Shown here one piece after another: positions 28,170-54,796 of a stretch of DNA of 64,000 nt. The stretch spans positions 5,518,001-5,582,000 of the forward strand of contig NZ_CP132339.1 in NCBI RefSeq assembly GCF_030944405.1, written 5' to 3'. The notes below the pieces were generated by a model. That model saw only the letters and a list, made by a program, of their open reading frames with translations. It made no database searches and had not been told where the DNA came from. This DNA comes from Janthinobacterium sp. J1-1 (GTDB lineage: Bacteria; Pseudomonadota; Gammaproteobacteria; Burkholderiales; Burkholderiaceae_D). Position 1 is the first letter of the stretch. Each line of letters opens with the position of its first letter. The translations under genes and the position numbers were made by a program.

Positions 28170-28863
28170 CATGGAACGATGTTTTTATTTTCACTCCCAG
28201 ATAATAACTATTTTCTTGATAGTTATTCATCCCAGACCATTCCTTCGATCAGGCTATTAAATCAATACCCTGAATTGCATATCAAAATAATAAATAATTA
28301 TTTCTATCGCACAGCCACTGCAATTAAATTAATCAATAACAAGACTGAAAAGCCACAACTACATTTTCGATAGTCGAATAATTTCTCACGAAAATACACG
28401 GAAATAGCGCGATTCAGAGAAAAACCCGTGCCAGCTTATCCATTTGGTGAGTATTGGTGATTATTTCCGTGAAAAAACTTTGTCAGAATATAGTTATCGA
28501 CTGTGATTAAAATGAAATTGAAAGTTTCGAAATTGAAACTACCATCATAGGGAAGACAGCGAGTTCAAGCGTGCAAAACAGCGGCTCCCCCCGCATGCGG
28601 CCCAAACAACGCCCATGCCTGCCGAAAAAAACCGGCACAAGAATAAACAAGGAAGGGCAGCGACCTTATTGAATGCACGCCTGATTCTTTTCAATCAGCA
28701 ACGCTTAAATAAATATGCTTTACTTGCACTATCCACAGCAGGGATGCATCAACACAACAACACGGCCCAAGCCACGCCGGAGAAACCAGGGATGACGACT
28801 TACTCATCCTTCAATGAATTCTGAGAAACAAGCGGCACTCACAACCTATTCGGAGATCTTCAA
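28170..28863 (+). other. Long AT-rich leader upstream of the giant repeat protein gene
   Basis: Nearly 700 bases with no credible gene, and strikingly AT-rich between ~28180 and 28540 against a very GC-rich background. It contains TGAAA motifs in near-tandem (28509-28540: ATGAAATTGAAAGTTTCGAAATTGAAAC), which could be a repeated regulator site. A 69-codon open frame at 28615 lacks a ribosome site and is probably not a gene. GGAG at 28852-28855 serves the downstream ATG. Such long AT-rich regions often bind H-NS-like proteins and precede surface-protein genes. Confidence 0.55.
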
Positions 28864-31800
28864 ATGGCCACCACCCCAACCCCAGCCCAAGTTCCTGCCA
28901 GCACCAGTGGTGCAGCAAGCATAATCGCCGCGCAAGCAGGCAATCCAGCTGCGGTGCCGCCTGCCCAAGCCGCCGCCAAAGCGCAAAGCAATCAGCGCAA
29001 GCTGCTCGACGAAGACGAGCTGGAGCAAGGTGCGGATGCGGGCCAATCGATGCCACCGGAAAACGTGGTCGAAGTGATCGGCGAAGCGGGCATGGGCATC
29101 TCCGGTGCCGCGCTGGCAGGCACGGCTGCCGCCATCGCGGCCGCAGCGGCCGCCGGTGGCAGCGGCGCCGGCGAAGCGGCTGGCCAGGCAGGTGGCGATG
29201 GCACGGGCAATAGCGGTGGCGCGGCAGCCATCCCCAGCGGCAACGTGGTCGACGTCGCCGGCAGCAGCACCCTGACCGGCGCCGGCACAGGCGGTTTTGG
29301 CTCCATCAGCGGCCTGGGCGCCTTGGGTGCGCTGGGCGGCATCGGCTTGATCGCCGCCGCGGCAACCGGTGGCAGCAGCGCCGCGGCAGCCGGCATTGGC
29401 GGCGGCACCGGAGGTACCGGCGGTGGCACTGGAGGTACCGGCGGCACGGGTGGCACCGGTGGCAACACCGGCGGCGGTGTCGGCGGCCAGGGCGACGGTA
29501 GTTCCACTTTTATCGTCACCGGCGCCGCCATCGCCGCCGCCACGGCGGCACTGGCCGCCGCCAACACCGCGCAAGCCGCGGACGCCGCTGCGGCAACCGC
29601 CGCCAGCAATGCGGCGGCAACACAGGCCGCGGCCAATGCGGCCGTGCTGGCCGACCAGCAAGCTGCACAAGCACAAGCTGCGGCAACGCAGGCGCAAGCG
29701 GCCGCCACGGCGGCAGCGGCCGCACAAAACGCGGTCGCCGCCGACAATGCGGCAGCTGCCGCCAACAATACTGCCGCCGCATCCCAAGCAGCCGCCAATG
29801 CCGCACAAAATGCCGATGCGGCGGTCGGCACCACCACCCAGGCGGCGAACGCCGCAGCAGCCGCACAGGCGGCCGCCGCCGCGCAAGCCAACCTCAGCGA
29901 TGCGCAAGCGCTGCAGGCAGCGTCCAACAGCGCCGCCGCGGCGGCCGCCGCCGCCAACCAGCAAGCCAGCCTCAGCGATGCACAGGCGCTGGCCGTGAAT
30001 GCCAACGATGACGCCGCCAACGCCGCCAACACGGCCGCGCTGGCCAATGCCTCCGACGCCAATGCGCTGGCCACGGCGGCCGCCGCTGCCGCCGCACAAG
30101 CCGACAACGCCGCCGCCATTGCCGGCCAGACCGATGCCGCCGCCCTGAGTGCAAACGCCGACACGGCCACCGCGCAAGCGGGCGCGGCCCAGGCGCAAGC
30201 CAACGCCACCGATGCCGGCGCGCTGCAGCAAGCGGCCAACGCCGCGCAAGCCAACGCCCAAGCGGCAGCCACGCAAGCGGCCGCCACCGATGCCGCCGCC
30301 CTGAACGCAGCGGCGGCCGCCGCCGCACAAAACGCCGCCAGCGCCACCGCTGTGGCCAACCAGACCGATGCCGCCGCGCTGGGGCAAGCCTCGAACAACG
30401 CCGCCGCGCAAGCGGCCGCCGCCCAGGCGCAAGCCGATGCCACCGATGCGCCGGCACTGGCCGTGGCGGCCAACGCCGCCGCCAATGCCGCCATCGCCGC
30501 CAATGTTGCGGCACAGACGGATGCCGACGCCCTCGGCGCCGCTGCCGCGGCCGCCGCCGCGCAAGCGGCCAGCGCCAATGCCATTGCCAACCAGACCGAC
30601 GCCGCCGCGCTGCAAACGGCGTCCAACAACGCCCAGGCGGCATCCGATGCTGCCGCCGCGCAAGCGGCCGCCAGCGACGCCACCGCGCTGGCGCAAGCCG
30701 CCGCAGCCGCCAATGCCGCAGCCCAGGCCGCCGCCAACCTGGCCAACCAGACCGACGCCGCCGCGCTGGGCGCCGCGTCCGCCAGCGCCAACCAGGCCGC
30801 CAGCGACGCTGCCGCCATCGCCAACCAGACCGATGCCGCCGCCCTGCAAACGGTGTACAACAACGCCCAGGCGGCATCCGACGCCGCCGCCGCGCAGGCG
30901 GCCGCCAATGACGCCACCGTACTGGGCCAGGCCGCCAACGCCGCCAATGCCACAGCCCAGGCCGCCGCCACCCTGGCCAACCAGACCGACGCCGCCGCGC
31001 TGGGCGCCGCCTCGACCGCCGCCACGCAAACGGCCAACAACGCCACCTCGATTGCCAACCAGACCGACGCGGCCGCCCTGCAAACGGCGTACAACAACGC
31101 CCAGGCAGCATCCGATGCCGCCGCCGCGCAGGCGGCCGCCAATGACGCCACCGTACTGGGCCAGGCCGCCACCGCCGCCAATGCGGCCGCCCAGGCCGCC
31201 GCCACCCTGGCCAACCAGACCGATGCCGCCGCGCTGGGCGCCGCCTCGACCGCCGCCACGCAAGCGGCCAACAATGCCGCCACCATTGCCAACCAGACCG
31301 ACGCCGCCGCGCTGCAAATCGCTTCCGACGCCGCCCAGGCCGCTGCCGCAGCGGCCGCAGCGCAAGCGGCCGCCACCGATGCCACCGTGCTGGGCCAGGC
31401 CGCCACTGCCGCCAATGCGGCCGCCCAGGCCGCCGCCACGCTGGCCAACCAGACCGACGCCGCCGCACTGGGCGCCGCGTCAAACGCCGCCACGCAAGCG
31501 GCCAACAACGCGGCCACCCTGGCCAATCAGACCGATGCGGCCGCACTGCAAGCCGCCTCCGACGCCGCCCAGGCCGCTGCCGCAGCGGCCGCCACGCAGG
31601 CGGCCGCCACCGACGCCACCGTGCTGGGCCAGGCATCGAATGTTGCCGCCGCCGCCGCGCTGGCCGCCGCCACCCTGGCCAATGCCACCGACGCCGCCGT
31701 GCTGACCGGCATCTCGACCGCCGACGACCAGCTGGCCGCCGCCGCCCTGGCGCTGGCCAACGCCACCGATGCGGCCGCCTTGCAGCTTGCCTACGACGCC

Positions 31801-33246
31801 GCCCAGCTCGCAGCGACCAACGCCGCGACGGTGGCCGCCGCCACCGACACCGACGCCCTCAACCCGGCCGCCAACGCCGCCAATGCGCTGTCCGCCAACG
31901 CCGTCACCCTGGCCAACGCCACCGATGCAGGCCTGCTGGCCGCTGCCGCCGCCACCACCGCGCAAACGGCCAGCAACGCCGCCACCCTGGCCGGCGCCAC
32001 CGACGCCACCGCGCTGGGCCTGGTGTCCGATGCGGCCGCCGCCACTGCCGCCAACGCACAGACGCTGGCCGACGCCACCGACGCCGCCGCCCTGGCGCTG
32101 GCGTCCGGCGCGGCGGCCGTCACCGCCGCCAACGCACAGACACTGGCCGACGCCACCGACGCCGCCGTGCTGGCCACGGCCGCCGCCACCGCCGCCAATG
32201 CGGCCGCCACCGCGCAAACGCTGGCCGACGCCACCAATGCGGCCGCCCTGCAAATCACCTCCGATGCGGCCGCCGCCGTGGCGCAAGGCGCCGCCACCCA
32301 GGCCGGCCTGACCGACGCCGCCGCGCTGGCCATCGTCTCGGGCAACGACGCCGCCGCCGCGCTGGCCGCGCAGACGCTGGCCGACGCCACCGACGCCAAC
32401 GCGCTGCAAGCCGCCTCGAACACGGCCGCTTCCGTCGCGGCCAACGCGCAGACGGTGGCCGACATGACCGATGTCCCCACGTTGCAGGCTGCCTATGATG
32501 CGGCCGCCGCCAATGCCGCCACCGCCAATGCGAATGCCGCCGGCATCAACCTGAATGCGGACATCAGCGCCGCCAACGCCAGCTCCCTGGCCGCGATTGC
32601 CGCCCAACTGACGGCCAGCCAGGCCAATGTCGTCGACCTGACCGTCATCGTCAACAATCTGCAGGTGCTGGCCGATGCGGCCGACGCCCTGGCTGACGCC
32701 ACCGACGCCAATGTGCTGGGCCTGGTCTCGGCCGCCGACGCCATCACCGCGCAAAACCTGCAGGCAATCGCCGACGCGACCGACGCCGATGCGCTGGGCG
32801 TGATTTCCACCGCCGACGCCGTTGCGGCTGCCGCCGCCTCACTGCTGGCGTCGCAAAGCGACGCCAGCGCACTGGGTCTGGCGTCCACCGCAGCGGCCGC
32901 CGCCGCCACCGCCGCGCAAGCCACCGCCGACCTGACCGACGCCGTGACACTGGGCGCGGCATCGACCGCCGCAGCGGCCGCCGCCACGGCCGCGCAGGCT
33001 GCCGCCGACGCCAGCGACGCCGTCGCGCTGGGACTCGTCTCGACCGCCGATGCCGCCACCGCCAATGCGCTGGCGACCATCGCCAACCTGACCGACGCCA
33101 CCGCGCTGGGCGTGACTTCGACGGCCGACGCCGCGCTGGCCGCCACGGCCCAGGCCACCGCCAGCCTGACCGACGCCGTCGCGCTGGGCCTGATCTCGAC
33201 AGCCGCCGCCACCGCGTCCACCGCCGCCACCAACCTGGCAACCTGA
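28864..33246 (+). CDS. Giant Ala/Asp-rich repeat protein, N-terminal part (type I secretion substrate)
   Basis: 1460 residues to a stop at 33244-33246. Residues ~1-125 are a low-complexity but non-repetitive head with the only cluster of Lys/Arg/Glu (RKLLDEDELEQG). Residues ~130-210 hold a hydrophobic Gly/Ala stretch (LGALGALGGIGLIAAAATGG) and a Gly-Thr linker, resembling the N-terminal anchor of large type I-secreted adhesins. From ~residue 345 (nt ~29893) tandem 26-residue repeats begin, typically TDAAAL...AANNAATLANQ. I see no Cys or Trp. The frame ends because one base appears missing near 33237; adding it joins this to the frame ending at 38405. TolC/ABC/HlyD genes follow. No RTX nonapeptides are seen. 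Probably a surface or secreted adhesin-like protein; family not recognised. Confidence 0.75.
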   Translation: MATTPTPAQVPASTSGAASIIAAQAGNPAAVPPAQAAAKAQSNQRKLLDEDELEQGADAGQSMPPENVVEVIGEAGMGISGAALAGTAAAIAAAAAAGGSGAGEAAGQAGGDGTGNSGGAAAIPSGNVVDVAGSSTLTGAGTGGFGSISGLGALGALGGIGLIAAAATGGSSAAAAGIGGGTGGTGGGTGGTGGTGGTGGNTGGGVGGQGDGSSTFIVTGAAIAAATAALAAANTAQAADAAAATAASNAAATQAAANAAVLADQQAAQAQAAATQAQAAATAAAAAQNAVAADNAAAAANNTAAASQAAANAAQNADAAVGTTTQAANAAAAAQAAAAAQANLSDAQALQAASNSAAAAAAAANQQASLSDAQALAVNANDDAANAANTAALANASDANALATAAAAAAAQADNAAAIAGQTDAAALSANADTATAQAGAAQAQANATDAGALQQAANAAQANAQAAATQAAATDAAALNAAAAAAAQNAASATAVANQTDAAALGQASNNAAAQAAAAQAQADATDAPALAVAANAAANAAIAANVAAQTDADALGAAAAAAAAQAASANAIANQTDAAALQTASNNAQAASDAAAAQAAASDATALAQAAAAANAAAQAAANLANQTDAAALGAASASANQAASDAAAIANQTDAAALQTVYNNAQAASDAAAAQAAANDATVLGQAANAANATAQAAATLANQTDAAALGAASTAATQTANNATSIANQTDAAALQTAYNNAQAASDAAAAQAAANDATVLGQAATAANAAAQAAATLANQTDAAALGAASTAATQAANNAATIANQTDAAALQIASDAAQAAAAAAAAQAAATDATVLGQAATAANAAAQAAATLANQTDAAALGAASNAATQAANNAATLANQTDAAALQAASDAAQAAAAAAATQAAATDATVLGQASNVAAAAALAAATLANATDAAVLTGISTADDQLAAAALALANATDAAALQLAYDAAQLAATNAATVAAATDTDALNPAANAANALSANAVTLANATDAGLLAAAAATTAQTASNAATLAGATDATALGLVSDAAAATAANAQTLADATDAAALALASGAAAVTAANAQTLADATDAAVLATAAATAANAAATAQTLADATNAAALQITSDAAAAVAQGAATQAGLTDAAALAIVSGNDAAAALAAQTLADATDANALQAASNTAASVAANAQTVADMTDVPTLQAAYDAAAANAATANANAAGINLNADISAANASSLAAIAAQLTASQANVVDLTVIVNNLQVLADAADALADATDANVLGLVSAADAITAQNLQAIADATDADALGVISTADAVAAAAASLLASQSDASALGLASTAAAAAATAAQATADLTDAVTLGAASTAAAAAATAAQAAADASDAVALGLVSTADAATANALATIANLTDATALGVTSTADAALAATAQATASLTDAVALGLISTAAATASTAATNLAT

Positions 33247-33810
33247 CCGACGCTGTTGCGCTGGGCACGGTCTCGACCGCCGCCACGGCCGCCGCCAATG
33301 CCGCGCAAGCGACCGCCAACCTGACCGACGCCGCCGCGCTGGGCCTGATCGCCACCGCCGATGCGGCGCTGGCCGCCACGGCCCAGGCCACCGCCAACCT
33401 GACCGACGCCGTCGCCCTGAACCTGGTCTCGACAGCCGCCAATACGGCCGCCGCCGCCGCCCTGGCGACGGCCAACCTGACCGATGCCGTCGCACTGGGC
33501 ACGATCTCGACCGCCGCCACGCAGGCGGCCAATGCGGCCGCCGCCACCGCCAACCTGACCGACGCCGTCGCGTTGGGCCTGGTGTCGACGGTCAACGCGG
33601 CCACTGCGGCCACCCTGCAGAACACCGCCAACCTGACCGATGCCGCCGCGCTGCAACTGATTGCGACCGCCGACGCGGCCGCCGTCACCACCACCAATGT
33701 GCTGGCCTCGGTGCTCGACGCCGTGGTGCTGGGCACCGCGCATACGCTGGATGCCACCGCGGCACTGCTGGCGACCACGGTTGCCGCCCTGACCGACGCC
33801 GCCGCGTTGA
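29893..33810 (+). repeat. Tandem 78-bp (26-residue) repeats, about 50 units
   Basis: Each unit carries Thr/Ser-Asp followed by Leu four residues later (TDAAAL, SDAQAL, TDADAL), and successive TD pairs are 26 residues apart at every place I counted. Units diverge in the Ala-rich remainder. The DNA is dominated by GCC codons and runs of GCCGCC, prone to slippage. The frameshift lies inside this block. Confidence 0.85.
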
Positions 33811-36800
33811 CCGTGACCGCCAACAATGACGCCGCCGCCGCTGCCGCCGCTGCCGCCTACTCGGCCTCGCGGCCGCTCGACTTGGTCGCCGCCCTGGCCG
33901 CCACGGTGGCCGCCACCACCGCCACCCTGTCGCGCGCCGCCGCCGATGGCGCCATTGCCGACGACGCCAATGCCGCGACCGCGGTCGCCAGGTCGGCCGC
34001 CTCGCTGGCCCTGCTCAACCAAGCCATTGCGGCCGATAACGCGGCCACCGCCGCCGCCGCCCAGGCAGCACTGTCGCAAGCAGCCGCGCAAACCGCCCTG
34101 GCTGACGATGCCGCCGCCGCCGCCGCCGCCACCGTCGCGGCCACTTCGCTGGCCGCCACCCAGGCCGCGCAGGCTGCCGACGCGGCGGCCGCATCGACGG
34201 CGGCCACCGCCGCCAATGCGCTGAACGCGCTGAACGCCGCCCTGGCAGCCGACGCCGCCGCCGCGTCGACCGCCGCCAACGCCGTGCTGGCCAATGCCGC
34301 CACCGCCGCAGCCGTGGCCGATGACGCCGCCGCCGCACTGGCCGCCACCACGGCAGCCGCCTCGCAAGCGGCCGCCAGCGCCGTCACCATCGCCAACAAT
34401 GCCATCGCCGCACTGAACAGCGCGCTGGCCGACGATGCCGCCGCCGTCAACGCGGCACTGAACGCGACCAATACGCTGGCCGCCACCAATGCCGCCATCG
34501 CCGCCGATACGGCCGCCGCCGTCGCCGCGAATGTCGCCGCGCTGTCGGCCGCCGCCACCGCAGCGGCCCAGGCCGACGACCTGGCCGCCGCCACCGCCGC
34601 CACGGTGGCCGGCCTGTCGCTGGCCGTCACGCAGGCGGCGCAGGCGCTGGACGCCACCGCCGCCGCCGCCGTGGTCACCGCCAACAACGCGCTGGCGGTC
34701 CTGAACAGCGCGCTGGCGGACGACGCCACCGCCGCCACCGCCGTCGTCGCCGCCGCCAATGCGCTGGCGGCCCTGAACGCGGCCCTCGCCGCCGATGCCG
34801 CCGTCGCCACCACCGCCGCCACGGCGGCGGCCTCGCTGCTGGCCACCACCAATGCCCAGGCGGACGACGCCGCAGCTGCCGCCGCGGCGACAGCCGCCGT
34901 GCTTGCGCAAAACGCCGCCGACGCCGCACTGCTGCTTGATGCAGGCGCCGCCTTTATCGCCGCCGCCGCCGCCACGGCGCTGGCGCAAGCCAATGCAGCG
35001 CTTAATGACGACAATGCCGCCGCCAATGCCGCGCACGTCGCCGGCATCTCGCTGGCCGCCACGCTGGCGGCGCTGAACGACGACGCCGCCGCCGTCGTCG
35101 CCAACACGGCGCTGAATGCGGCGATCGGCGACCTGAACATTGCCGTCGCCGCCGACGCCAATGCCCTCAGCCTGCAAAGCGTGGCCGACGCCGACGCGCT
35201 GGTGGTGATCAATTCGCGCTCCGCCGTCGACGCCGCCAACCAGGCCAATGCCGATGCCGCCGCCGCGCTGGCGGCCTTGAACGCCGCGCAGGCCGACGAT
35301 GCCGCCGCCGCTGCTGCCGCCACCGCCGCCGCAGCAGCGCTGGTGGCCGCCAATGCGGCGCAAGCGGACGACCTGGCAGCGGCAGCCGCCGCCGCCCAGG
35401 CCGCCATTTCAGCCGCCGCCACCGCCGCCGCGCAAAGCGACGATGCGGCCGCCGCCACCGCCGCCACGGCCGCCGCCGCCGCGCTGGCCGCGCTGAACAC
35501 GGCCCTGGCCGACGACGCCGCCGCCGTCACCGCGCAGGCGGCCGCCATTGCCGCGCAAGCGGCTGCGACCAACGCACAGAACGACGACGCGGCGGCGCTG
35601 GCCGCCGCTGCCGCCGCCGCACTGGCGCTGGCCGCCACCACCGCCGCCCAGGCGGACGACACCTCGGCCGCCACGGCCGCCACCAACGCCGCCGCCGCCC
35701 TCACCGCCTACAACAATGCGCTGGCCGACGACGCAGCGGCAAGTGCTGCGCAAGCCGCCGCCGCCATCGCGCAGGCCGCGGCAACGGCGGCGCAAAACGA
35801 CGATGCGGCCGCCGCCGCCGCTGCCGCCAGCGCAGGCGCCGCCCTGGTCGCGCTGAACGCCGCGCTGGCCGATGACGCGGCCGCCGCCAACGCCGCGGCG
35901 ATTGCCGCCACGGCTGCCACCGCCGCAGCCGCTGCCACCGCCGACGACGCGGCTGCCGCTGCCGCCGCTGCCGCTGCCGCAGTGGCGCTGGCCGCCGCCA
36001 CCGCCGCGCAAAACGACGACGCCGCCGCCGCCCAGGCTGCGGCGGACGCCGCCGCCGCGCTCGCCGCGCTCAACGCCGCCCTGGCGGCGGACGCGGCCGC
36101 CGTCACCACGGCCACTGCCGCCGTGGCCGCCGCCGCCGCCGCGCAAGCGGCCTTGAATGACGATGCCGCCGCACTCGCAGCCGCCACGGTGGCAGCCAAT
36201 GCGCTGGCCGCCGCCACCGGCGCGCAAAACGATGACGCCGCCGCCGCCCAGGCTGCACTGGCCGCCGCCGCCGCGCTGGCCGCGCTCAATGCCGCCCTGG
36301 CCGACGACGCCACCGCCGCCACCAATGCGGCGCTGGCCGCCGCCGCCGCCCAGGCGGCGCAAGCCGACGACACGGCCGCCCTGGCCGCTGCCGCCAACGC
36401 CGCTGCGGCAGTCGCCGCCGCCACCGCCGCGCAAAACGACGACGCTGCCGCGCAAGCGGCCGCCGCCAACGCCGCCGCCGCCCTGGCCGCCCTGAATGCG
36501 GCGCTGGCCGACGACGCCACCGCCGCGCAGGCAACCGCTGTCGCCGCCGTGGCCGCCGCCGCCGCACAAGCGGCGCAAAACGACGATGCGGCCGCCCTGG
36601 CCGCCGCCGCAGCAGCGGCCAATGCCGTCGCTGCCGCCACGGCTGCGCAAAACGACGATGCCGCCGCCGCCCAGGCCGCCGCCAACGCCGCCGCCGCCCT
36701 GGCCGCCCTGAACGCGGCGCTGGCCGCCGATACGGCCGCCGCCAATGCGGCCCAGGCAGCGCTGGTGGCAGCCAGCGCGGCACAGGCGGCGCAAGCCGCC

Positions 36801-38405
36801 GATACGGCCGCCCTGGCCGCTGCCGCCCAAGCGGCGCAGGCCGCCGCCACGCTCGCCGCCGCGCAAAACGACGACGCGGCCGCCGCGACAGCCGCCGCCA
36901 ATGCCGCCGCCGCCCTCGCCGCGCTGAACGCCGCACTGGCTGACGACGCAGCCGCTGCGGCCGCCACGCAAAACGCCGCCACCGCCCTGGCAGCGGCCCA
37001 GGCCGCGCAAAGCGACGATACGGCCGCCCTGGCCGCCGCCGCCCAAGCTTCGGCCGCACTGGCCGCCGCCAACGCCGCGCAAAACGACGACGCCGCAGCG
37101 CAAGCGGCCGCCGCCAATGCCGCCGCCGCCCTGGCCGCCTACAATGCGGCCTTGGCCGACGACGCCAGCGCCGCCGCCGCCGTGCAATTCGCCGCACAGG
37201 CCCAGGCCAGCGCCCAAGCCGCGCAAGCGGACGATGACGCCGCCGCGCAAGCGGCCGCACAGGCCGTCATTGCGCAGGCCGCCGCCACCGCGGCGCAAAA
37301 CGATGACGCAGCCGCAGCAGCGGCGGCCGTCATCGCCGCCGCCGCCGTGGCCGCGCGCGACGCCGCCCTGGCCGATGACGCCAATGCGGCAGCCACCGCC
37401 AATGCCGCCAGCGCCGCGCTGGCCGCTGCCAGCGCCGCACAGGCGGCCGATGCCGCCGCAGCGGCGGCCGCGATCCAGGCCGCCAACTCGCAGGCGGCGC
37501 TGCAGGCCGCGCTGGCCGACGATGCGGCAGCCGCCGTCGCCAGCCAGAATGCCGCCGCCGCCCTGGCGGCGTATAACGCGGCCCAAGCCGATGATGCCGC
37601 CGCCGTGCAGGCGCTGGCGGCTTACGACGCGGCGCAAGCGGCGATGCTGCAGGCGATCACCGTGGCGGCGCAAACCGACGCCGGCGCGCTGGGCGCCATC
37701 GCCGCCAGCGATGCGCAAACGGCGGCCGGCCTGCAATCGATCGCCGACCAGACCGACGCCAGCGCCCTGACCCTGCAAGCGCAGGCTGACGCGGCAGCGG
37801 CCACCGCCGCCGCCAACGCGGCGCAAGCGACCGACGCGCAAGCCCTGAGCGTGGCGGCCGATGCGGCCATCGCCAGCGCACTGCAAGTGCAGGCACAAGC
37901 CGACCTGACGGACGCCGCATCGCTGACAGTGGCCGCCAATGCCAGTGCGGCGACGGCGGCCGCGGCGCAAGCCCAGGCCGACCTGACCGACGCGGCGCAG
38001 CTATTCACCTTGAGCCAGCTGGCACAGCACAGCCCGCAGATCCTGTCCGACTTCCAGGGCGGCCTGCCGGCCGCCGGCGGCGACGTGATCGACATGTCGC
38101 CGATTGCCGACCTGACGGCGTCGGTGGCGGTCGGCGTGTCGCTGGGCACCGACTTCGGCAACGACAACATCTTCATTTTCAATGAGACGGCGGTGTCGAT
38201 CGGTGCGGCGGCCAGCGCGATTGCGGCCGACAACAGCGTGCTGTCGGGCCAGGGTTATATCGTGATCCGCGATATCGACAATGGCGGCGCGGTGACGGTC
38301 TACCACTCGAGCGACCTGAGTTCGGCGCAGTCGCTCGACACGGCGCTGGTATTGCTCAGCAACGTCAATATCACGCAACTGACGGCGGCCAACTTCATCG
38401 TCTGA
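33240..38405 (+). CDS. Giant Ala/Asp-rich repeat protein, C-terminal part (continuation after frameshift)
   Basis: This frame is open from the frameshift to 38405 but has no ATG with a ribosome site (the first start-like codon, TTG 33573, is inside a repeat), so it is not an independent gene. It continues the 26-residue repeats to ~33810, passes a short unique spacer (YSASRPLDLVAALAATVAATT), then has ~50 repeats of a second, 24-residue class (DDAAAA...LAALNAALA). Five more 26-residue repeats follow (~37675-38000), then a unique ~130-residue C-terminal domain (LSQLAQHSPQILSDFQGG to LTAANFIV) that looks like a type I secretion signal: acidic, aromatic-poor, hydrophobic end. Joined, the protein would be about 3180 residues. 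Confidence 0.7.
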   Translation, partial: NLTDAVALGTVSTAATAAANAAQATANLTDAAALGLIATADAALAATAQATANLTDAVALNLVSTAANTAAAAALATANLTDAVALGTISTAATQAANAAAATANLTDAVALGLVSTVNAATAATLQNTANLTDAAALQLIATADAAAVTTTNVLASVLDAVVLGTAHTLDATAALLATTVAALTDAAALTVTANNDAAAAAAAAAYSASRPLDLVAALAATVAATTATLSRAAADGAIADDANAATAVARSAASLALLNQAIAADNAATAAAAQAALSQAAAQTALADDAAAAAAATVAATSLAATQAAQAADAAAASTAATAANALNALNAALAADAAAASTAANAVLANAATAAAVADDAAAALAATTAAASQAAASAVTIANNAIAALNSALADDAAAVNAALNATNTLAATNAAIAADTAAAVAANVAALSAAATAAAQADDLAAATAATVAGLSLAVTQAAQALDATAAAAVVTANNALAVLNSALADDATAATAVVAAANALAALNAALAADAAVATTAATAAASLLATTNAQADDAAAAAAATAAVLAQNAADAALLLDAGAAFIAAAAATALAQANAALNDDNAAANAAHVAGISLAATLAALNDDAAAVVANTALNAAIGDLNIAVAADANALSLQSVADADALVVINSRSAVDAANQANADAAAALAALNAAQADDAAAAAAATAAAAALVAANAAQADDLAAAAAAAQAAISAAATAAAQSDDAAAATAATAAAAALAALNTALADDAAAVTAQAAAIAAQAAATNAQNDDAAALAAAAAAALALAATTAAQADDTSAATAATNAAAALTAYNNALADDAAASAAQAAAAIAQAAATAAQNDDAAAAAAAASAGAALVALNAALADDAAAANAAAIAATAATAAAAATADDAAAAAAAAAAAVALAAATAAQNDDAAAAQAAADAAAALAALNAALAADAAAVTTATAAVAAAAAAQAALNDDAAALAAATVAANALAAATGAQNDDAAAAQAALAAAAALAALNAALADDATAATNAALAAAAAQAAQADDTAALAAAANAAAAVAAATAAQNDDAAAQAAAANAAAALAALNAALADDATAAQATAVAAVAAAAAQAAQNDDAAALAAAAAAANAVAAATAAQNDDAAAAQAAANAAAALAALNAALAADTAAANAAQAALVAASAAQAAQAADTAALAAAAQAAQAAATLAAAQNDDAAAATAAANAAAALAALNAALADDAAAAAATQNAATALAAAQAAQSDDTAALAAAAQASAALAAANAAQNDDAAAQAAAANAAAALAAYNAALADDASAAAAVQFAAQAQASAQAAQADDDAAAQAAAQAVIAQAAATAAQNDDAAAAAAAVIAAAAVAARDAALADDANAAATANAASAALAAASAAQAADAAAAAAAIQAANSQAALQAALADDAAAAVASQNAAAALAAYNAAQADDAAAVQALAAYDAAQAAMLQAITVAAQTDAGALGAIAASDAQTAAGLQSIADQTDASALTLQAQADAAAATAAANAAQATDAQALSVAADAAIASALQVQAQADLTDAASLTVAANASAATAAAAQAQADLTDAAQLFTLSQLAQHSPQILSDFQGGLPAAGGDVIDMSPIADLTASVAVGVSLGTDFGNDNIFIFNETAVSIGAAASAIAADNSVLSGQGYIVIRDIDNGGAVTVYHSSDLSSAQSLDTALVLLSNVNITQLTAANFIV
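33955..37615 (+). repeat. Tandem 72-bp (24-residue) repeats, about 50 units
   Basis: Units are marked by Asp-Asp (or Ala-Asp) and Leu fourteen residues later, with DD pairs 24 residues apart (for example DDAAALAAATVAANALAAAT then GAQN and DD). Alternating subtypes (QNDD and LADD units) suggest a higher-order 48-residue pair. The repeat class differs in period from the flanking 26-residue blocks. Confidence 0.85.
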
Positions 38406-38451: not shown

Positions 38452-38492
38452 ATCTCTTGAATCCGCAGGCACCCAAGGGCCAGAAAGACGCA

Positions 38493-39794
38493 ATGAGATT
38501 ACCTGTTTTACCAGTTTCGACCACAGGCCGCGCCTCCCCGCGCGGCTTCCCGACCTGTCTCGTGGCCGTGCTGGCCGCCGCGAGCCTGGCCTTCACCTCC
38601 CCTTGCGCGCAGGCGCAAAGCGCCACCGCCTGGAGCTTCGACCAGGTGCTGCGGCAAGCGCTGCAAAGCCACCCCGCGATCCAGGGCAAACGCTCCGTGC
38701 AGGCCGCCGCGCGGGCCGACCTCGATGGCGCGCAGTGGCAGCGCTTTCCCAGCCTGTCGGCCGAAGTGCCGACCGGCTCGCAGGAAACCGGCGGCGTGGT
38801 GCGCATCGACCAGCCGCTGTGGAGCGGCGGACGGATCGACGCCGGCATCGATGCGGCGGGCAGCCGGGTCGACGCGGCCGGCGCCGGCATCGAGGAAGAA
38901 CGCCTGACCTTGTCGCTGCGCGTGATCGCAGCCTACACCGAAGCGCTGCGCCAGACGGCGCGCGTGCAGGTGGCCCAGACCGGCATGGCCGAACACGACC
39001 GCCTGCTCGACATGATACGGCGCCGCGTGGAGCAGTCGGTCAGCTCGCAAACCGACCAGCGCCTGGCCGAATCGCGCGCCTACCAGGCCGCCAATGACGT
39101 GTCGAACGCGCGCCAGGCGCTGGCCAATGCGCTGGCGCAGCTGTCGCAGCTGGCCGGCAAACCGGTGCGCATCGTCACCCCGGCCGGCATCGGCGTGGGC
39201 GAGCTGCTGCCGGACGCCAACCTGGAACGCGTGATGCGCCAGGCCGTGGCCTATTCGCCGACCCTGCGCCGGCTCGACTTCGAGGCGCAGGCGGCCGACT
39301 CCGAGATCGCCCTGCAGCGTTCGGCCTACATGCCGAAGGTGCTGCTGCGCGTGGAAAAACCCACCGGCGGCATCAACGCCGACAACCGCACGCGCGCCAT
39401 GCTGGTGCTGCAGGCGCAGCCGGGCGCGGGCCTGTCGGCCAAGGCCGGCGTCGACGCCGCCGTGGCGCGGCGCGAAGGCGCCCGCTCGGCCCACGACGCG
39501 GCCGAACGCGACGTGCGCGAACGCTTCACCATCGACTGGAACGAGGCCGAATCCAGCCGCGAGCGCCTGGGCAATGCGGGCGAATCGAGCACCACCTCGA
39601 CCCAGGTGTTCGAATCGTATGCGCGCCAGTACGTGATCGGCCGCAAGAGCTGGAACGACGTGCTCAACGCCGTGCGCGAAGCCACGCAGGCGCAGTTCGT
39701 GCTGGAAGACACGCGCGCCCAGGCGATCGCCGCCAGCCTGCGCCTGGCGGCGCAAACCGGCACCCTGGCCGGCCGTACCGCGCCATCCAACTGA
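38493..39794 (+). CDS. TolC-family outer-membrane efflux protein (type I secretion)
   Basis: 433 residues from ATG 38493; the open frame begins at a TTG 36 bases earlier. The signal peptide ends near AQAQS (residue ~42). The remainder is the TolC repeat of two coiled-coil/beta segments (FDQVLRQALQSHPAIQG; IDQPLWSGGRIDAG; second half AVAYSPTLRRLDFEAQAADSEIALQRSAYMPKV). It forms the outer-membrane channel of a tripartite exporter with the ABC and HlyD-like proteins encoded next. It starts 88 bases after the repeat protein gene, with a GC-rich hairpin in the gap. Confidence 0.9.
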   Translation: MRLPVLPVSTTGRASPRGFPTCLVAVLAAASLAFTSPCAQAQSATAWSFDQVLRQALQSHPAIQGKRSVQAAARADLDGAQWQRFPSLSAEVPTGSQETGGVVRIDQPLWSGGRIDAGIDAAGSRVDAAGAGIEEERLTLSLRVIAAYTEALRQTARVQVAQTGMAEHDRLLDMIRRRVEQSVSSQTDQRLAESRAYQAANDVSNARQALANALAQLSQLAGKPVRIVTPAGIGVGELLPDANLERVMRQAVAYSPTLRRLDFEAQAADSEIALQRSAYMPKVLLRVEKPTGGINADNRTRAMLVLQAQPGAGLSAKAGVDAAVARREGARSAHDAAERDVRERFTIDWNEAESSRERLGNAGESSTTSTQVFESYARQYVIGRKSWNDVLNAVREATQAQFVLEDTRAQAIAASLRLAAQTGTLAGRTAPSN

Positions 39795-39816
39795 ACACAT
39801 GCATCAAGGAGACAGC

Positions 39817-41964
39817 ATGGACACTTCCATCAAACACGGCCTGCTGCCACTGGTCGACCAGGCGGCACGGCTCACCGGCCAGCACCTGGCCGCCGCCCGC
39901 CTGGCCGACCTGCAGCGCCAGCTGGACCACCTGGACGAAGACGGCGGCGCCGCGGCAGTACTGAGCCAGGTCTGGCAGGCGGCCGGCCTGGAAGGCGCGG
40001 CGCGCCTGCTGCACGATCCGACGCCGGGCGAGCTGCCCTTCGCCATCCATAGCGACAGTACCGGCTGGGGCCTGCTGCAGGCGCGCGCCGGCGACGGCGC
40101 CTGGCGCGGCGAAGGCATGGATGGCCGCCCTTTGCTGCTGGCGTCGCTGGCCGGCCTGGCCTGCGTGGGCCTGCCAAGGCGCAACGCCCAGGGTGCCGGC
40201 AAGCTCGGCGCCCTGGACCTGGTGCGGCGCGCGCTGTGGCTGAAAAAAAGCGTGTTTGTCGACGCCGTGCTGGCCACCGCCATCGTCACCCTGCTGACCA
40301 TGGCCACGTCATTGTTTTCGATGCAGGTCTACGACCGCGTGATTCCGAACCAGAGCTTTTCCACCTTGTGGGTGCTGGTGGTGGGCGTGGCGCTGTCGAT
40401 CGGCCTGGAATTCATTCTCAAGCAGGTACGCAGCCGCATCGTCGACCACTCGTGCAAAGAAGTCGATCATGAACTGTCGGAGTGGTTTTTCCAGCGCATG
40501 CTGGGCATCCGCATGGAAGCGCGTCCGGCCTCGGTGGGCACCCTGGCGGCGCAGGTGAAAGGCTTTGAAATGGTGCGCGGCGTGCTGACCTCCACCTCGC
40601 TGTTCGTGCTGACCGACGTGCCGTTCGCGCTGCTGTTCCTGATCATGATCACCATCATCGGCGGCTGGCTGGTGGTGGTGCCGCTGGTGGCGCTGCCGCT
40701 GGCCCTGGTGTGCGGACTGATGTTCCAGCGCGCGATCCAGGCGCATACGCGCAACAACCTCAATGCCAGCAACCGCAAGGCCGGGCTGCTGGTTGAAGCG
40801 GTCGATGGCGTCGAAACCCTCAAGGGCAGCAGCGCCGAATGGATGATGCAGGCGCGCTGGGGCGAACTGGTGGCCGAGACCAGCCACGCGGAACAGAATA
40901 TCCGCGACTATGCGGCCCTGTCGCAAAACATCACGGCCGGCTTCCAGCAACTGACGAACGTGGCACTGATCTCGATGGGCGCCTGGTTCGTGGCCGAAAA
41001 CCAGATGACCATGGGCGCGCTGATGGCCTGCACCATCATCAGCAACCGCGCCCTGATGCCGATCGTGCAGCTGCCCGCCGTGATGGTGCAATGGGCACAT
41101 GCGCGCGCCGCCATCGACGGCCTGGAACAGGTGATCAGCCTGCCCAATGAAGCGGACAACGCGGCCCATGCGCTGACGCCGCGCGGCCTGGACAAGGGCC
41201 TGCGCTTCGAACGCATCCGTTTCAGCTACGGCGGCGCGCAGAAGGTGGCGCTGGAGGTCGATGCGCTGGCGATCCGCCCTGGCGAAAAAGTCGGCCTGGT
41301 GGGCGCCATCGGTTCCGGCAAGAGCACCCTGCTCAAACTCGCTTCGGGCCTGTTCCAGCCGTCCGAAGGCAAAGTGTACCTGGGCGATGTCGACATGGCC
41401 CTGCTGGCGCCGCCGGTGGTACGTGAAATGATCGGCTACCTGCCGCAGGATACGCGGCTGTTCAGCGGCACCCTGCGCGACAATCTGCTGCTGGGCCTGG
41501 CCGATCCGGGCGAGGAAGCGATTCTGGCGGCCGCCCGGCGCACGGGCCTGATCGACCTGATCACCGGCCAGCCCCGCGGCCTGGCGCTGGCGATTACCGA
41601 AGGCGGGCGCGGCGTGTCGGGCGGCCAGCGCCAGCTGATCGCGGTCACGCGCATGCTGCTGGCGAAACCGAAGATCTGGCTGCTGGACGAGCCGACCGGC
41701 GCGATGGACGCCAAGACCGAGGCGCGCATCGTGGCCCTGCTCGGTGAATTGTCGGCCGAAGGCGTGACGATGGTCGCCACCACCCACAAGAACGCCCTGC
41801 TGCCCTTGCTGGACCGGCTGGTGGTGCTGCAGGCCGGCCGCGTGCTGCTGGACGGCCCGCGCGACGCCGTACTGGCCAAACTGTCGGGCAAGCCACCCAC
41901 CATGCAGGCGGTACCGGCCTCTCCGGCGCCCGCCCCCGTCGTTGTACAAGGAGCCGTGGCATGA
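39817..41964 (+). CDS. Type I secretion ABC transporter (LapB/HlyB type)
   Basis: 715 residues from ATG 39817, which has AAGGAG before it; an upstream ATG at 39799 lacks one. Residues ~1-125 resemble a C39-peptidase-like domain but I see no catalytic Cys, the state found in exporters of non-cleaved substrates. The membrane domain spans ~145-430, and the nucleotide-binding domain has Walker A GAIGSGKSTLLKL, signature VSGGQRQ and Walker B IWLLDEPTGAMD. It energises export of the giant protein across the inner membrane. It overlaps the HlyD gene by four bases. Confidence 0.94.
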   Translation: MDTSIKHGLLPLVDQAARLTGQHLAAARLADLQRQLDHLDEDGGAAAVLSQVWQAAGLEGAARLLHDPTPGELPFAIHSDSTGWGLLQARAGDGAWRGEGMDGRPLLLASLAGLACVGLPRRNAQGAGKLGALDLVRRALWLKKSVFVDAVLATAIVTLLTMATSLFSMQVYDRVIPNQSFSTLWVLVVGVALSIGLEFILKQVRSRIVDHSCKEVDHELSEWFFQRMLGIRMEARPASVGTLAAQVKGFEMVRGVLTSTSLFVLTDVPFALLFLIMITIIGGWLVVVPLVALPLALVCGLMFQRAIQAHTRNNLNASNRKAGLLVEAVDGVETLKGSSAEWMMQARWGELVAETSHAEQNIRDYAALSQNITAGFQQLTNVALISMGAWFVAENQMTMGALMACTIISNRALMPIVQLPAVMVQWAHARAAIDGLEQVISLPNEADNAAHALTPRGLDKGLRFERIRFSYGGAQKVALEVDALAIRPGEKVGLVGAIGSGKSTLLKLASGLFQPSEGKVYLGDVDMALLAPPVVREMIGYLPQDTRLFSGTLRDNLLLGLADPGEEAILAAARRTGLIDLITGQPRGLALAITEGGRGVSGGQRQLIAVTRMLLAKPKIWLLDEPTGAMDAKTEARIVALLGELSAEGVTMVATTHKNALLPLLDRLVVLQAGRVLLDGPRDAVLAKLSGKPPTMQAVPASPAPAPVVVQGAVA

Positions 41965-43142
41965 ACAACACCAGCCGAGTGACGAAAATCGAGGTCAGGA
42001 AGGAAGCCAAACGGGGCCGCATGCTGATCTGGACCTGCAGCATCGCCCTGCTGGGCGTGATCGGCTGGGCCTCGTGGGCGGAACTGGACCAGGTGACGCG
42101 CGCCAACGGCCAGGTGATCGCCAGCTCGCGCAACCAGATCATCCAGGTGGCCGACGGCGGCGTGCTGGCCGAGCTGCGCGTGCACGAGGGCAGCATCGTC
42201 AAGCGCGGCGCCCTGCTGGCGCGTTTCGACCGCACGCGGGCCGAATCGAGCTACCTGGAAAGCACGGCCAAGGCGGCCGGCCTGAAGGCGGCCGTGGCGC
42301 GCCTGCAGGCCGAGGTGTTCGGCGGCACGCCGAAGTTCCCGGCCGAACTGCAGGATTTCCCCGAGTTCCGCGCCAACCAGCTGGCCTTTTTCGGCAAGCG
42401 GCAGGGCGCGGTGCAGGCCGAAGTGAGCGCTTTAAGCAGCAGCATGCAGCTGATCAAGGAAGAGCTGGAAATGAACTTGCCGCTGCTGGAAACGGGCGAC
42501 GTCAGCCGTGCCGAGATATTGAAACTCAAGCGCCAGGTGGTCGACATCCAGGCGCAGATCACGAATCGCCGCAACAAATATCTGCAAGAATCGCAGACCG
42601 ACCTGGTGAAAGCGCAGGAAGACCTGGCCGGCGTGCTGCAAACGGTGACCCAGCGCAAGGAGCAGCTCGGTTCGACCGATATCTACGCGCCCACCGACGG
42701 CATCGTGCGCAACGTCAGGCTCACCACCCTGGGCGGCGTGGCCAAGCCCGGCGAAGAGATCCTGCAGATCGTGCCCACCGACGACGACCTGATCATCGAA
42801 GCGAAGGTGAAACCGGCCGATATCGCCTTTATCAAGCCGGGCCTGCCCACCGCCGTGAAACTGGACGCCTACGACTACGCCATCTACGGCCGCCTGCGCG
42901 GCACCGTCAGCTATATCAGCGCCGATACCCTGAGCGAAGACAACAAGGGCAACGAACAACCCTACTATCGCGTGCAGATCAAGACCAGCGGGCGCAATCT
43001 GCTGGGCAAGAACGGAGAGCCGATCCTGATCCAGCCCGGCATGACGGCCACGGTGGAGATCAACACCGGCCGCAAGACGGTGCTGCGTTATCTGACGAAA
43101 CCGATCACCAAGACGTTTTCGGAGTCGATGGGGGAACGGTAG
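41961..43142 (+). CDS. HlyD-family periplasmic adaptor (type I secretion)
   Basis: 393 residues. One N-terminal membrane helix (MLIWTCSIALLGVIGWASWA) is followed by split biotinyl-lipoyl halves (GQVIASSRNQIIQVADGGVLAELRV; IYAPTDGIVRNVRLTTLGGVAKPGEEILQIVP), an alpha-helical hairpin ~95-235 that would dock on TolC, and a beta-barrel domain to the C-terminus. It links the ABC transporter to the outer-membrane channel. It starts within the ABC stop codon (ATGA). It is the last gene of the export operon. Confidence 0.94.
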   Translation: MNNTSRVTKIEVRKEAKRGRMLIWTCSIALLGVIGWASWAELDQVTRANGQVIASSRNQIIQVADGGVLAELRVHEGSIVKRGALLARFDRTRAESSYLESTAKAAGLKAAVARLQAEVFGGTPKFPAELQDFPEFRANQLAFFGKRQGAVQAEVSALSSSMQLIKEELEMNLPLLETGDVSRAEILKLKRQVVDIQAQITNRRNKYLQESQTDLVKAQEDLAGVLQTVTQRKEQLGSTDIYAPTDGIVRNVRLTTLGGVAKPGEEILQIVPTDDDLIIEAKVKPADIAFIKPGLPTAVKLDAYDYAIYGRLRGTVSYISADTLSEDNKGNEQPYYRVQIKTSGRNLLGKNGEPILIQPGMTATVEINTGRKTVLRYLTKPITKTFSESMGER

Positions 43143-45580: not shown

Positions 45581-45608
45581 AAAACAGGTCCTCTTACAGG
45601 AGCGCACG

Positions 45609-47231
45609 ATGACCAGCCAGGCCGGAAAGTACCTCCAATCGCTTTTGCTGATACCACCTATCGTTGCCGCAAGCTTGCTTGGCACGCGCTGGTTCAATCA
45701 ACAGAACCCCGTGCCAGCGGCCAAGCCGATCGTACAAGCTGCGCCGGTCACCGAGCAATCCCGGCGCGAATATATGCTGGAAGTGATCGGGCTTGGCGTG
45801 ACGCTGGATAAATATCGCCAGGGCAAGCTATGGGAAGCCCTGCAAAAAGGAAATGCGCATGCGAGCATACGCGAGCAAGATGTCCGGAAATATACATGGG
45901 ATGAAATGGAAAGGTCAGGCATTGCCGGCGGCCGTGGTGGCGACACGCTGGAAAACGGTGCGAAATACCTGCCCATGTATTTCGGTGTGCCTGTATTTAA
46001 TGCCGAGCCACCCATTTATAACACCCGAATGTTGGACAGTCCCGACTCACCAGCAATAGGCTTGGCCGGTGGCTACTCCTCATCCGGCTTGCATTGGCAT
46101 CTGTTTGCTGCCGGTCCGCGCCACCTCAGTGAACACCCTGATCGTATTCTGGAAGATGTATTTGCCTTTTTCGATGCCAACCCCGACGTGCCTTACATCG
46201 TGCTCAATTCCGAGGACAGCATGTCCACGCGCGACTTGTACCGTCCTGATGGATCATTATCGCTGGTCAGGAACGGTTACTACATCCCTGAAATGCCTGA
46301 TGCATCCGCCCTGTTTGTGCTGGCCCGGCGCGATCGCATTGATGCCGTACGCAAGTTTGCGTTTGAAGATGCGCCGCCCGAGGACAGCGTCGATGACCTG
46401 AACAATTACGGGGTGGCGCGACGGCTGTATCTCGCGTATGACGCGCTGATGAGTAGCGTGCCTCATCCCCGCAAGAAAGAGAACCCGGACGCATTTACCA
46501 TGCGCCAGCCCACCATCGAAGAATGGCTGCCCGTCGCCGCCCAGTTCGCCCGCCGTACCGATATTCGCGGCACCGGCAGCTTCAGCCGGCTCGACAAGCT
46601 GCATGGCCGCAATTACCACCCGCCGAAGGACTGGCAGCCGACGCCCTGGTTTCCGATGCCTTTCAACCGTGAACAGCTGGCCCAGCTGGACCGCCTGCCC
46701 ACCCTGGGCTTTATCCACCGCCCCACCTTCGTGACAATGGTCGACGCGGACGGCAAGCTCCTGACGCGCCGCGACCAGCGCGAACAGGCTTTGCAGGCGG
46801 GCTGGCGGGAAGCGCTGCGCAGCCTGCCCGAGACAGAACGGCCGGCGGCGCCGGCACGCCTGGTGGCCGCCACCGGCGGCGACACGCAACAGTTAATCAC
46901 GCTGCACAGGACCTTGATGAAGCACGCAGAAGATGGCGGCACCGAACTCGACAGCGGCAACCCCGCACAGTGGATCGACACCGACCGGCGTCTCGGCAAC
47001 ACGGGTGCGGCTACCTGGTTCGTGCAAATCGCCATCGGCTTGATGGGCAGCTACCGCGATGGCGGCGTCAGCGCGGCGGTCAACCTGCGCAACCCTCGGG
47101 AAGCGTCCATCGTGCTGGTCAGTCCGCCGCCGGAGGAAAAACGCCGCACACAACAGCACCCGAACGGCGGCGACGTGTTTGGCCACCATGGCACGCCGGC
47201 CATCGATCCGGCGAATTACCCGGCGAATTAG
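45609..47231 (+). CDS. Tla3-type T6SS lipase adaptor (DUF2875 family)
   Basis: 540 residues from ATG 45609 with ACAGGAG upstream. A single N-terminal hydrophobic segment (YLQSLLLIPPIVAASLLG) is a membrane anchor or export signal. The remainder is DUF2875: YMLEVIGLGVTLDKYRQGKLW, LPMYFGVPVFNAEPPIYN, the VPYIVLNSEDSMSTRDLY segment, and the C-terminus with VFGHHGTPAID. In Pseudomonas the DUF2875 protein Tla3 escorts Tle3 to VgrG via the periplasm. It follows tle3 by 28 bases. A second copy of its last ~34 codons lies at 48671-48773, downstream of the GGDEF gene. Confidence 0.82.
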   Translation: MTSQAGKYLQSLLLIPPIVAASLLGTRWFNQQNPVPAAKPIVQAAPVTEQSRREYMLEVIGLGVTLDKYRQGKLWEALQKGNAHASIREQDVRKYTWDEMERSGIAGGRGGDTLENGAKYLPMYFGVPVFNAEPPIYNTRMLDSPDSPAIGLAGGYSSSGLHWHLFAAGPRHLSEHPDRILEDVFAFFDANPDVPYIVLNSEDSMSTRDLYRPDGSLSLVRNGYYIPEMPDASALFVLARRDRIDAVRKFAFEDAPPEDSVDDLNNYGVARRLYLAYDALMSSVPHPRKKENPDAFTMRQPTIEEWLPVAAQFARRTDIRGTGSFSRLDKLHGRNYHPPKDWQPTPWFPMPFNREQLAQLDRLPTLGFIHRPTFVTMVDADGKLLTRRDQREQALQAGWREALRSLPETERPAAPARLVAATGGDTQQLITLHRTLMKHAEDGGTELDSGNPAQWIDTDRRLGNTGAATWFVQIAIGLMGSYRDGGVSAAVNLRNPREASIVLVSPPPEEKRRTQQHPNGGDVFGHHGTPAIDPANYPAN

Positions 47232-54700: not shown

Positions 54701-54785
54701 GCCCACGTGGCGGAATTGGTAGACGCGCATGGTTCAGGTCCATGTGCCTTTGGGTGTGGGGGTTCGAGTCCCTCCGTGGGCACCA
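54701..54785 (+). tRNA. tRNA-Leu(CAG), copy 1
   Basis: 85 bases including encoded CCA. The acceptor arms GCCCACG/CGTGGGC pair perfectly, and the anticodon stem CATGG/CCATG encloses TTCAGGT (anticodon CAG). The long variable arm has TGCCTTTGGGTG, and the T stem is of the GGGGG/CCCTC form. It is followed by a strong terminator and separated from copies 2-4 by a metalloprotease gene. Confidence 0.97.
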
Positions 54786-54796
54786 TTACCGGATTC

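What the first reader, a model, noticed from the sequence alone, without database searches (positions are those of the whole stretch)
29893..38000. Giant Ala/Asp-rich secreted protein built from two repeat classes of different period (26 and 24 residues)
The sequence directly shows ~50 units with Thr/Ser-Asp pairs spaced 26 residues, then ~50 units with Asp-Asp pairs spaced 24 residues, then five 26-residue units again. Ala dominates and I see no Cys or Trp; Lys/Arg are almost absent after residue ~60. Known large type I-secreted adhesins mostly use beta-sandwich (Ig-like, RTX) repeats; an acidic, presumably all-helical repeat with two periods in one protein is unusual and I do not recognise a family. 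An extended helical rod or stacked-helix stalk displaying a small C-terminal domain is my inference.
Basis: partly seen in the sequence, partly recalled or inferred. Interest (0 to 1): 0.8.

Follow-up and report, generated by a model that had tools for sequence, protein, structure and literature searches.

The report
Giant helical rod surface protein, Janthinobacterium
A soil-and-water bacterium carries the gene for a giant, very acidic, alanine-rich surface protein that appears to be a chain of about a hundred short helices where related giant surface proteins use sheet-like domains; about half the genomes of the genus carry it, but the copy in this window is split by a one-base change of reading frame.

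Summary
The repeats are real: 51 unit positions of 26 residues, about 50 of 24, then five TD motifs spaced 26, far beyond shuffled controls. TolC, ABC and HlyD genes of type I secretion follow. The exporter occurs in the same 23 of 40 genomes as the domain; six of the 17 genomes without it were fetched and all six lack the whole cassette at that site. The repeats are under strong purifying selection. Cross-species conservation oscillates at 97 and 105 degrees per residue, an alpha-helical rhythm. Homologous C-termini in related genera sit on Ig-like and/or RTX proteins, so an alpha-helical stalk seems to stand in place of a beta stalk. No Pfam or NCBIfam family matches. Tertiary structure (AlphaFold pLDDT 47-52) and function are unresolved. 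Best reading: a type I-secreted surface rod or adhesin with a new helical stalk class.

The parts
28864..33246 (+). ORF1 (1460 aa): N-terminal region, Gly-rich linker and 43 positions of the 26-residue repeat; ends at a TGA inside a unit
28864..29559 (+). N-terminal region: about 75 residues with the only Lys of the protein, Ala/Gly-rich hydrophobic stretches, poly-Gly/Thr linker (limits by eye)
   Evidence: sequence; first 169 aa matched in 20 of 40 genus genomes
29890..33869 (+). 26-residue repeat block, 51 unit positions (43 in frame 1, 8 in frame 3)
33230..33246 (+). one-base change of reading frame (frame 1 to frame 3); the 26-residue phase is kept across it
33240..38405 (+). second part of the gene in frame 3 (1721 aa from the switch): last 8 positions of the 26 block, 24-residue block, five TD motifs spaced 26, C-terminal domain; the ORF listing gives its first start as TTG 33573
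33942..37610 (+). 24-residue repeat block, about 50 units; in the part aligned with relatives an Asp recurs every 24 columns and is invariant or nearly so
37668..38000 (+). second 26-residue stretch: four full units and a fifth TD motif at the start of the C-terminal domain
   Evidence: fifth motif by eye
38001..38402 (+). C-terminal domain (134 aa), 61-80% identical within the genus; related to C-termini of Ig-like/RTX proteins
38457..39794 (+). TolC-type outer-membrane protein (Pfam OEP above cut-off; TIGR01844 below its cut-off)
39799..41964 (+). type I secretion ABC permease/ATPase (nearest TIGR03375, LssB type, 664.7 bits against cut-off 693.1)
41961..43142 (+). HlyD-family periplasmic adaptor (TIGR01843 above cut-off)

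Best explanation
The gene encodes (or, in this strain, recently encoded) a giant type I-secreted surface protein. SHOWN: it is followed by its own TolC, ABC and HlyD genes; its C-terminal domain is homologous to the C-termini of Ig-like/RTX proteins; the middle is a conserved, selected, Ala-rich repeat array in two classes, 26 and 24 residues, whose conservation follows an alpha-helical rhythm. INFERRED: each unit is one helix of about 21-24 residues (about seven turns) capped by Thr-Asp (26 class) or Asp-Asp (24 class), so about 105 helices in series form a stiff or springy polyanionic stalk. The C-terminus leaves first through TolC and becomes the tip; the Ala/Gly-rich N-terminus and poly-Gly linker stay in or near the export pore and hold the protein on the cell. 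The stalk takes the place of the beta stalks of related adhesins. Likely role: attachment or biofilm/matrix formation. The window's copy would be truncated before its secretion domain if the frame change is real.
For: Cassette and exporter families; C-terminal domain and exporter orthologue in the same 23 of 40 genus genomes, neither in the other 17; cassette missing at the site in 6 of 6 lacking genomes fetched, of 17; order adhesin-TolC-ABC-HlyD kept in relatives; C-terminal homologues on Ig-like and/or RTX proteins, in one of which (G061) the neighbouring exporter matches at 65%; dN/dS 0.14-0.18 (26 block) and 0.09-0.13 (24 block) in 5 close pairs; entropy peak at 97 and 105 degrees, power 6.8 and 10.8 against shuffled 95th percentiles 2.1 and 2.0; one helix per unit in the AlphaFold model of nine 26-units (low confidence); a GGDEF gene within 0.4 kb of hlyD in 3 relatives and 1.1 kb in a fourth.
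Against: AlphaFold confidence is low (pLDDT 51.9 and 46.8, pTM 0.29 and 0.25), and Ala-rich sequence biases such models to helix. The second model puts the 24-units, and also the 26-residue tail with its five TD motifs, inside unbroken helices of 93-146 residues, against one helix per unit. Leu/Ile/Val/Met/Phe positions of the 26 block are stronger in the beta band than in the helix band, both over eight species (1.9 against 0.6) and in the window (1.85 against 0.75). No adhesive domain is recognised. No LapG homologue in the genome and no [TP]AAG site in the first 250 residues, so anchoring is conjecture. In this strain the frame is broken. No direct evidence of surface location or adhesion.
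Confidence: 0.66

Rival explanations
1. The repeats fold as three-helix bundles (78 or 72 residues) strung like spectrin or the staphylococcal Embp/Ebh bundles, giving a linear rod of about 17 + 17 bundles.
For: In the window, identity peaks every third unit: lag 3 is 0.47 against 0.28 (26 class) and 0.40 against 0.21 (late 24 block), reached by 0 of 1000 unit-order shuffles; weaker lag-3 peaks in the first 26 run of the five relatives with a long enough run (reached by 0 to 40 of 1000). An odd number of helices per bundle lets a rod run straight.
Against: The super-period is absent in the window's later 26 units (540 of 1000) and early 24 units (867 of 1000), and weak in the second 26 run of seven relatives (47-343 of 1000). 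The strong window signal partly reflects recent duplication of three-unit blocks. No confident model.
Confidence: 0.3
2. Continuous long alpha-helices forming coiled coils between chains; 26 residues in seven turns (3.71 per turn) would supercoil right-handed and 24 in seven turns (3.43) left-handed.
For: Seventh-harmonic conservation peak in both classes; the second model has helices of 93-146 residues through 24-units and the 26 tail.
Against: In the 24 class an acidic Asp recurs every 24 residues. For unit repeats the harmonic nearest to 100 degrees is the seventh in any case, so the exact angle is not measured. The conserved positions are mostly Ala, unusual for an extended coiled-coil core (recalled).
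Confidence: 0.18
3. A secreted, mostly disordered or partly helical polyanionic matrix polymer, not a stalk and not an adhesin.
For: Very low sequence complexity, net charge -92 and -129 in the two parts, low model confidence, no adhesive domain.
Against: Unit number and position-specific residues are conserved between species (850 of 850 and 750 of 750 codons aligned in 4 of 5 close pairs), with helix-phased conservation; a disordered polymer should tolerate unit gain, loss and drift.
Confidence: 0.12
4. The frame change is only a sequencing or assembly error and the strain makes an intact protein of about 3180 aa.
For: Both sides are conserved coding sequence in the same repeat phase; the relative nearest in repeat sequence reads through the matching place in one frame, 95% and 90% identical on either side; 15 of 23 genus members have single open frames.
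Confidence: 0.55

Closest known systems
RTX / Lap-type type I-secreted adhesins with beta-sandwich extenders (MpIBP, MhLap, AhLap; passages of PMC7493085 read)
   Same: type I secretion apparatus, giant repetitive middle, C-terminal secretion region
   Different: no beta-sandwich domains, no RTX nonapeptides, no LapG site or LapG gene found; middle is Ala-rich and apparently all-helical
Ig-like and RTX proteins of the same bacterial family (G061: Ig-like; G077: Ig-like and RTX; G103 and G124: RTX in the stretch fetched) and database proteins P0001-P0005, P0002 from a Gallionella MAG
   Same: homologous C-terminal domain; for G061 the same gene order, ABC protein 65% identical
   Different: Ig-like and/or RTX repeats instead of 26/24-residue helical units; in G061 the Ig-like frame and the C-terminal domain are separated by a run of N
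Embp / Ebh of staphylococci (start of the PMC7587433 abstract seen; the rest recalled)
   Same: giant surface protein with an all-helical repeat stalk
   Different: Gram-positive; longer repeats, each with helical bundles; no sequence match found here
Giant1-3 of Apilactobacillus kunkeei (passages of PMC12863079 read)
   Same: giant surface proteins predicted as rods of alpha-helical repeats, Ala-enriched
   Different: lactic acid bacteria, other terminal domains, 14.4-18.6% Ala in four of the giants against 45-51% here; no sequence comparison made
Compact Ala-rich relatives in G029 (532-aa frame) and G083 (559-aa frame, another genus)
   Same: C-terminal domain, neighbouring exporter genes, Ala-rich middle with TD motifs; no Pfam hit
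   Different: a few units only; may resemble the starting point of the expansion; the exporter match in G029 holds one stop

Membership tests
type I secretion substrate | adjacent TolC/ABC/HlyD genes in constant order | tested here: met
   exporter and C-terminal domain in the same 23 of 40 genomes
type I secretion substrate | C-terminal secretion domain | tested here: met
   by homology only, to C-termini of Ig-like/RTX proteins; no Pfam or NCBIfam hit on the domain itself
RTX adhesin | RTX nonapeptide repeats | tested here: not met
   no Pfam hit at E<=5 on either part, while PF00353 rings in relatives G077, G103, G124; 0 matches to GGxGxDx[LIVF]
RTX adhesin | tandem beta-sandwich extender (called defining in PMC7493085) | tested here: not met
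   no Ig-like family at E<=5 on either part, while Big_6/12/13 ring in G061 and G077; helix-phased conservation; no strand in the model of nine 26-units
Lap-type adhesin | LapG cleavage site and LapG protease | tested here: not met
   no [TP]AAG in the first 250 residues; PF06035 not found in the genome (of 14 control genomes only Caulobacter rings)
Embp/Ebh helical-bundle proteins | sequence match to known helical-bundle repeat families | tested here: not met
   no Pfam hit and no PDB sequence match better than E 0.12, a designed helical repeat protein; fold similarity not tested
Bap/BapA-type biofilm proteins | Ig-like repeats and a recognised N-terminal prefix domain | tested here: not met
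   no Pfam or NCBIfam hit at E<=5 on the N-terminus or on either part
giant alpha-helical rod proteins | experimentally or confidently modelled helical rod | tested here: inconclusive
   models helical but pLDDT 47-52

The most novel reading that the evidence does not exclude
A new class of type I-secreted giant surface rod built only of single-helix units (about 105 helices, two classes with about seven turns each), on a chassis whose relatives carry beta stalks. With almost no Lys/Arg and an Asp at every helix cap, the chain would stay unfolded in the cell and fold outside when cations neutralise the caps, a helical counterpart of calcium-triggered RTX folding.
Probability: 0.25. Interest if true: 0.8.

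Novelty: new variant of a known kind. Interest (0 to 1): 0.6.

Why it matters
Beta-sandwich stalks are described as a defining feature of biofilm-associated RTX adhesins (PMC7493085, passages read). A strongly conserved all-helical stalk, carried by 23 of 40 genomes of a genus on a related secretion chassis, would show that the stalk is a replaceable module, and it asks how a type I exporter handles a 200-300 kDa chain that should fold readily into helices. The two unit lengths with about the same number of helical turns give a natural set of variants for testing what sets stalk stiffness.

Tried and rejected
Beta-solenoid or beta-sandwich: set aside because cross-species conservation peaks in the helix band and stays low in the beta band in both blocks (1.7 and 0.8 at 150-180 degrees), and no beta family matches. 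Against this: LIVMF positions of the 26 block (eight species and window) and non-Ala positions of the window's 26 block are stronger in the beta band than in the helix band, and non-Ala positions of the window's 24 block peak at 120 degrees. Artefact of GC-rich low-complexity DNA: rejected by dN/dS and conservation in 23 of 40 genomes. Programmed frameshift or phase variation: no repeat tract or slippery run noticed at the switch by eye, single frame in 15 relatives; thought unlikely, not tested further. Ice-binding helix: considered because some isolates are cold-adapted (recalled); no evidence. Upstream ABC26/g27106 genes as part of the system: rejected, since they stand in genomes without the cassette. 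Marker g51080 is an ORF antisense to an RNase R-type gene (rnr); it only marks that locus.

Uninformative or faulty: the protein searches found nothing, but they also missed the genus's own proteins, so they are not evidence of absence; (C-terminal region) found five proteins, none of them named as from the genus. In one search the third segment (30500-31600) was out of frame and does not count; one search repeats the scan in frame. The 24-unit profile was collected with a motif that fixes Asp3, Ala5 and Ala6, so their invariance there is by selection; Ala23 (100%), Ala13 (95%) and Ala9 (92%) are not. The 26-unit profile was collected with a motif at positions 3-8, so Thr3, Asp4 and Leu8 are favoured by selection; Ala19, Ala22 and Ala26 are not. 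The 26-unit genome scan found 22 of 392 family genomes at E<=1e-15, all in the genus, and misses short relatives such as G029 and G083.

Full report
What is there. The window lies in a 6.95 Mb, two-contig genome of Janthinobacterium: contigs of its same-genus genomes match records named Janthinobacterium in length and place. The gene starts at 28,864 and ends at 38,405 on the + strand. It is read in frame 1 to a TGA at 33,244 and in frame 3 from there on; the 26-residue phase is kept across the switch, as expected of a recent one-base change or an error. The first-stage count is right: 51 unit positions of 26, about 50 of 24, then five TD motifs spaced 26, the fifth at the start of the C-terminal domain. 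Shuffles do not approach the observed identities at lags 26 and 24. Ala is 45-51%, Cys and Trp are absent, Lys/Arg nearly absent, net charge -92 and -129 in the two parts.

Is it a real protein? Of 40 genomes of the genus, the C-terminal 134 aa are found in 23 and the N-terminal 169 aa in 20. In 15 of those 23 both ends lie in one open frame of 2306-2467 aa. Of the other eight, G017, G024, G025 and G039 have the ends on different contigs, G026 has its C-terminal part near a contig start and no N-terminal match, G002 has an N-filled gap, G029 has a compact 532-aa frame, and one is the window. Eight named relatives (L059, L061, L062, L063, L065, L066, L068, L069) have complete frames without a stop. 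The relative nearest in repeat sequence (G024, contig L070: 76% against 61-67% for the other rows) reads through the place that corresponds to the window's switch in one frame. Against L059, five close species give dN/dS 0.14-0.18 in the 26 block and 0.09-0.13 in the 24 block; 850 of 850 and 750 of 750 codons align in four of the five (821 and 708 in L062). In the two distant species dN/dS is 0.28 (26 block) and 0.16-0.20 (24 block) with near-saturated dS. So unit number is steady in that clade, while the window has roughly one and a half times as many units. Tandem copies of a three-unit block at 30,581-31,723 (86% matches) show recent growth in this lineage.

Helices. In the 26-unit profile (units picked by a motif at positions 3-8) Ala stands at positions 19, 22 and 26 in 89, 84 and 98% and Asn/Asp/Gly at position 1 in 68%. 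In the 24-unit profile (107 units picked by a motif at positions 1-6) Ala stands at 9, 13 and 23 in 92, 95 and 100%; across 13 aligned rows an Asp recurs every 24 columns. Site entropy over eight species peaks at 97 degrees per residue in the 26 block and 105 degrees in the 24 block (powers 6.8 and 10.8; shuffled 95th percentile 2.1 and 2.0), and at 97 in the 26 tail (2.6 against 1.9); in each case this is the seventh harmonic of the unit, so about seven helical turns per unit. Because the signal of a repeat falls on harmonics of the unit, the exact pitch is not measured. Hydrophobic positions do not support this in the 26 block, where the beta band is stronger; in the window's 24 block they peak at 105 degrees. 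AlphaFold2 gave nine helices for nine 26-units, with breaks at the TD motifs, but at pLDDT 51.9 and pTM 0.29. The second model (24-units, 26 tail, C-terminus) has long helices that run through the units, the tail included, at pLDDT 46.8 and pTM 0.25, with the C-terminal domain not resolved. A three-unit super-period is strong in parts of the window and weak to moderate in relatives, which would suit three-helix bundles, but it is absent elsewhere in the same protein.

Secretion cassette. TolC (38,457), ABC (39,799) and HlyD (41,961) follow directly. Orthologues of the ABC protein (70-91% identity; one with a stop inside, in G029) occur in exactly the 23 genomes that have the C-terminal domain; of the other 17, nine have only ABC proteins of 35-37% identity and eight none at E<=1e-100. 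Six of these 17 genomes were fetched, chosen among the 13 that hold the neighbour g27106; in all six, ABC26 and g27106 are followed by the rnr locus with no match to the adhesin ends, TolC, ABC or HlyD. The unit of gain or loss thus looks like the whole cassette.

Relatives and the stalk swap. Outside the genus the C-terminal domain was found in 5 of 352 family genomes and in 1 other genome, weakly (E 4e-4), among 369 drawn from the class. Pfam finds Ig-like and RTX domains in the G077 frame that carries the domain, Ig-like domains in G061, and RTX repeats in G103 and in the fetched part of G124. In G061 a run of N separates the Ig-like frame from the C-terminal domain; its gene order is the same, with exporter proteins 53-70% identical. 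The fifth (G083) is a compact 559-aa frame with an Ala-rich middle and TD motifs and no Pfam hit; its exporter proteins are 58-71% identical. Of five database proteins with the same C-terminal region, four carry an Ig-like (PF19078) or RTX (PF00353) domain. The 26-unit profile itself was found only in Janthinobacterium, 22 of 392 family genomes at E<=1e-15. I read this as one secretion chassis with exchangeable stalks; exporters were compared only for G061 and G083.

What it is not. No Pfam or NCBIfam family matches either part even at E<=5 and no PDB sequence is better than E 0.12. RTX nonapeptides, a LapG site and a LapG gene were looked for and not found. It therefore should not be filed as an RTX or Lap adhesin, though it probably works like one.

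Literature. Seven text searches listed no paper that, from its title and abstract start, describes this protein or a type I-secreted giant with an all-helical stalk; passages were read in PMC8286594, PMC8929069, PMC12863079 and PMC7493085, other papers only as listings. PMC8929069 reports three type I systems in another Janthinobacterium strain without naming such a substrate in the passages seen. Gram-positive giant proteins with helical rods are known (PMC12863079 passages; PMC7587433 abstract start), so a helical giant as such is not new.

Verdict. A real, selected giant with a new helical stalk on a known kind of secretion chassis, its 26-unit repeat seen only in this genus: new variant of a known kind. 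Function, anchoring and three-dimensional arrangement remain inferred, and the copy in the window is split.

Noticed in passing
43244-47231: Tle3 T6SS phospholipase effector and Tla3 adaptor genes lie between hlyD and a GGDEF gene (47442-48590); in 3 relatives the GGDEF gene follows hlyD within 0.4 kb, so the pair may be inserted; G002 also has a Tle3 match after hlyD.
   Followed up: partly
54701-56624: Four tRNA-Leu(CAG) genes on the + strand next to rnr.
   Followed up: no
L102 (G002:C1:5890000-5907000): Fragments of the same repeats and of other genes stand between 17 N runs of 36 bases, apparently misplaced contigs in a one-contig assembly; repeat counts from that genome are unreliable.
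   Followed up: partly
28846-37970, - strand: Long antisense ORFs up to 956 aa over the repeats, taken to be by-products of the GC-rich codons and not genes (not tested).
   Followed up: no
L085 (G083) and L091 (G029): Compact Ala-rich relatives (559- and 532-aa frames) with the same C-terminal domain and neighbouring exporter genes, possible forerunners of the expanded repeats.
   Followed up: partly
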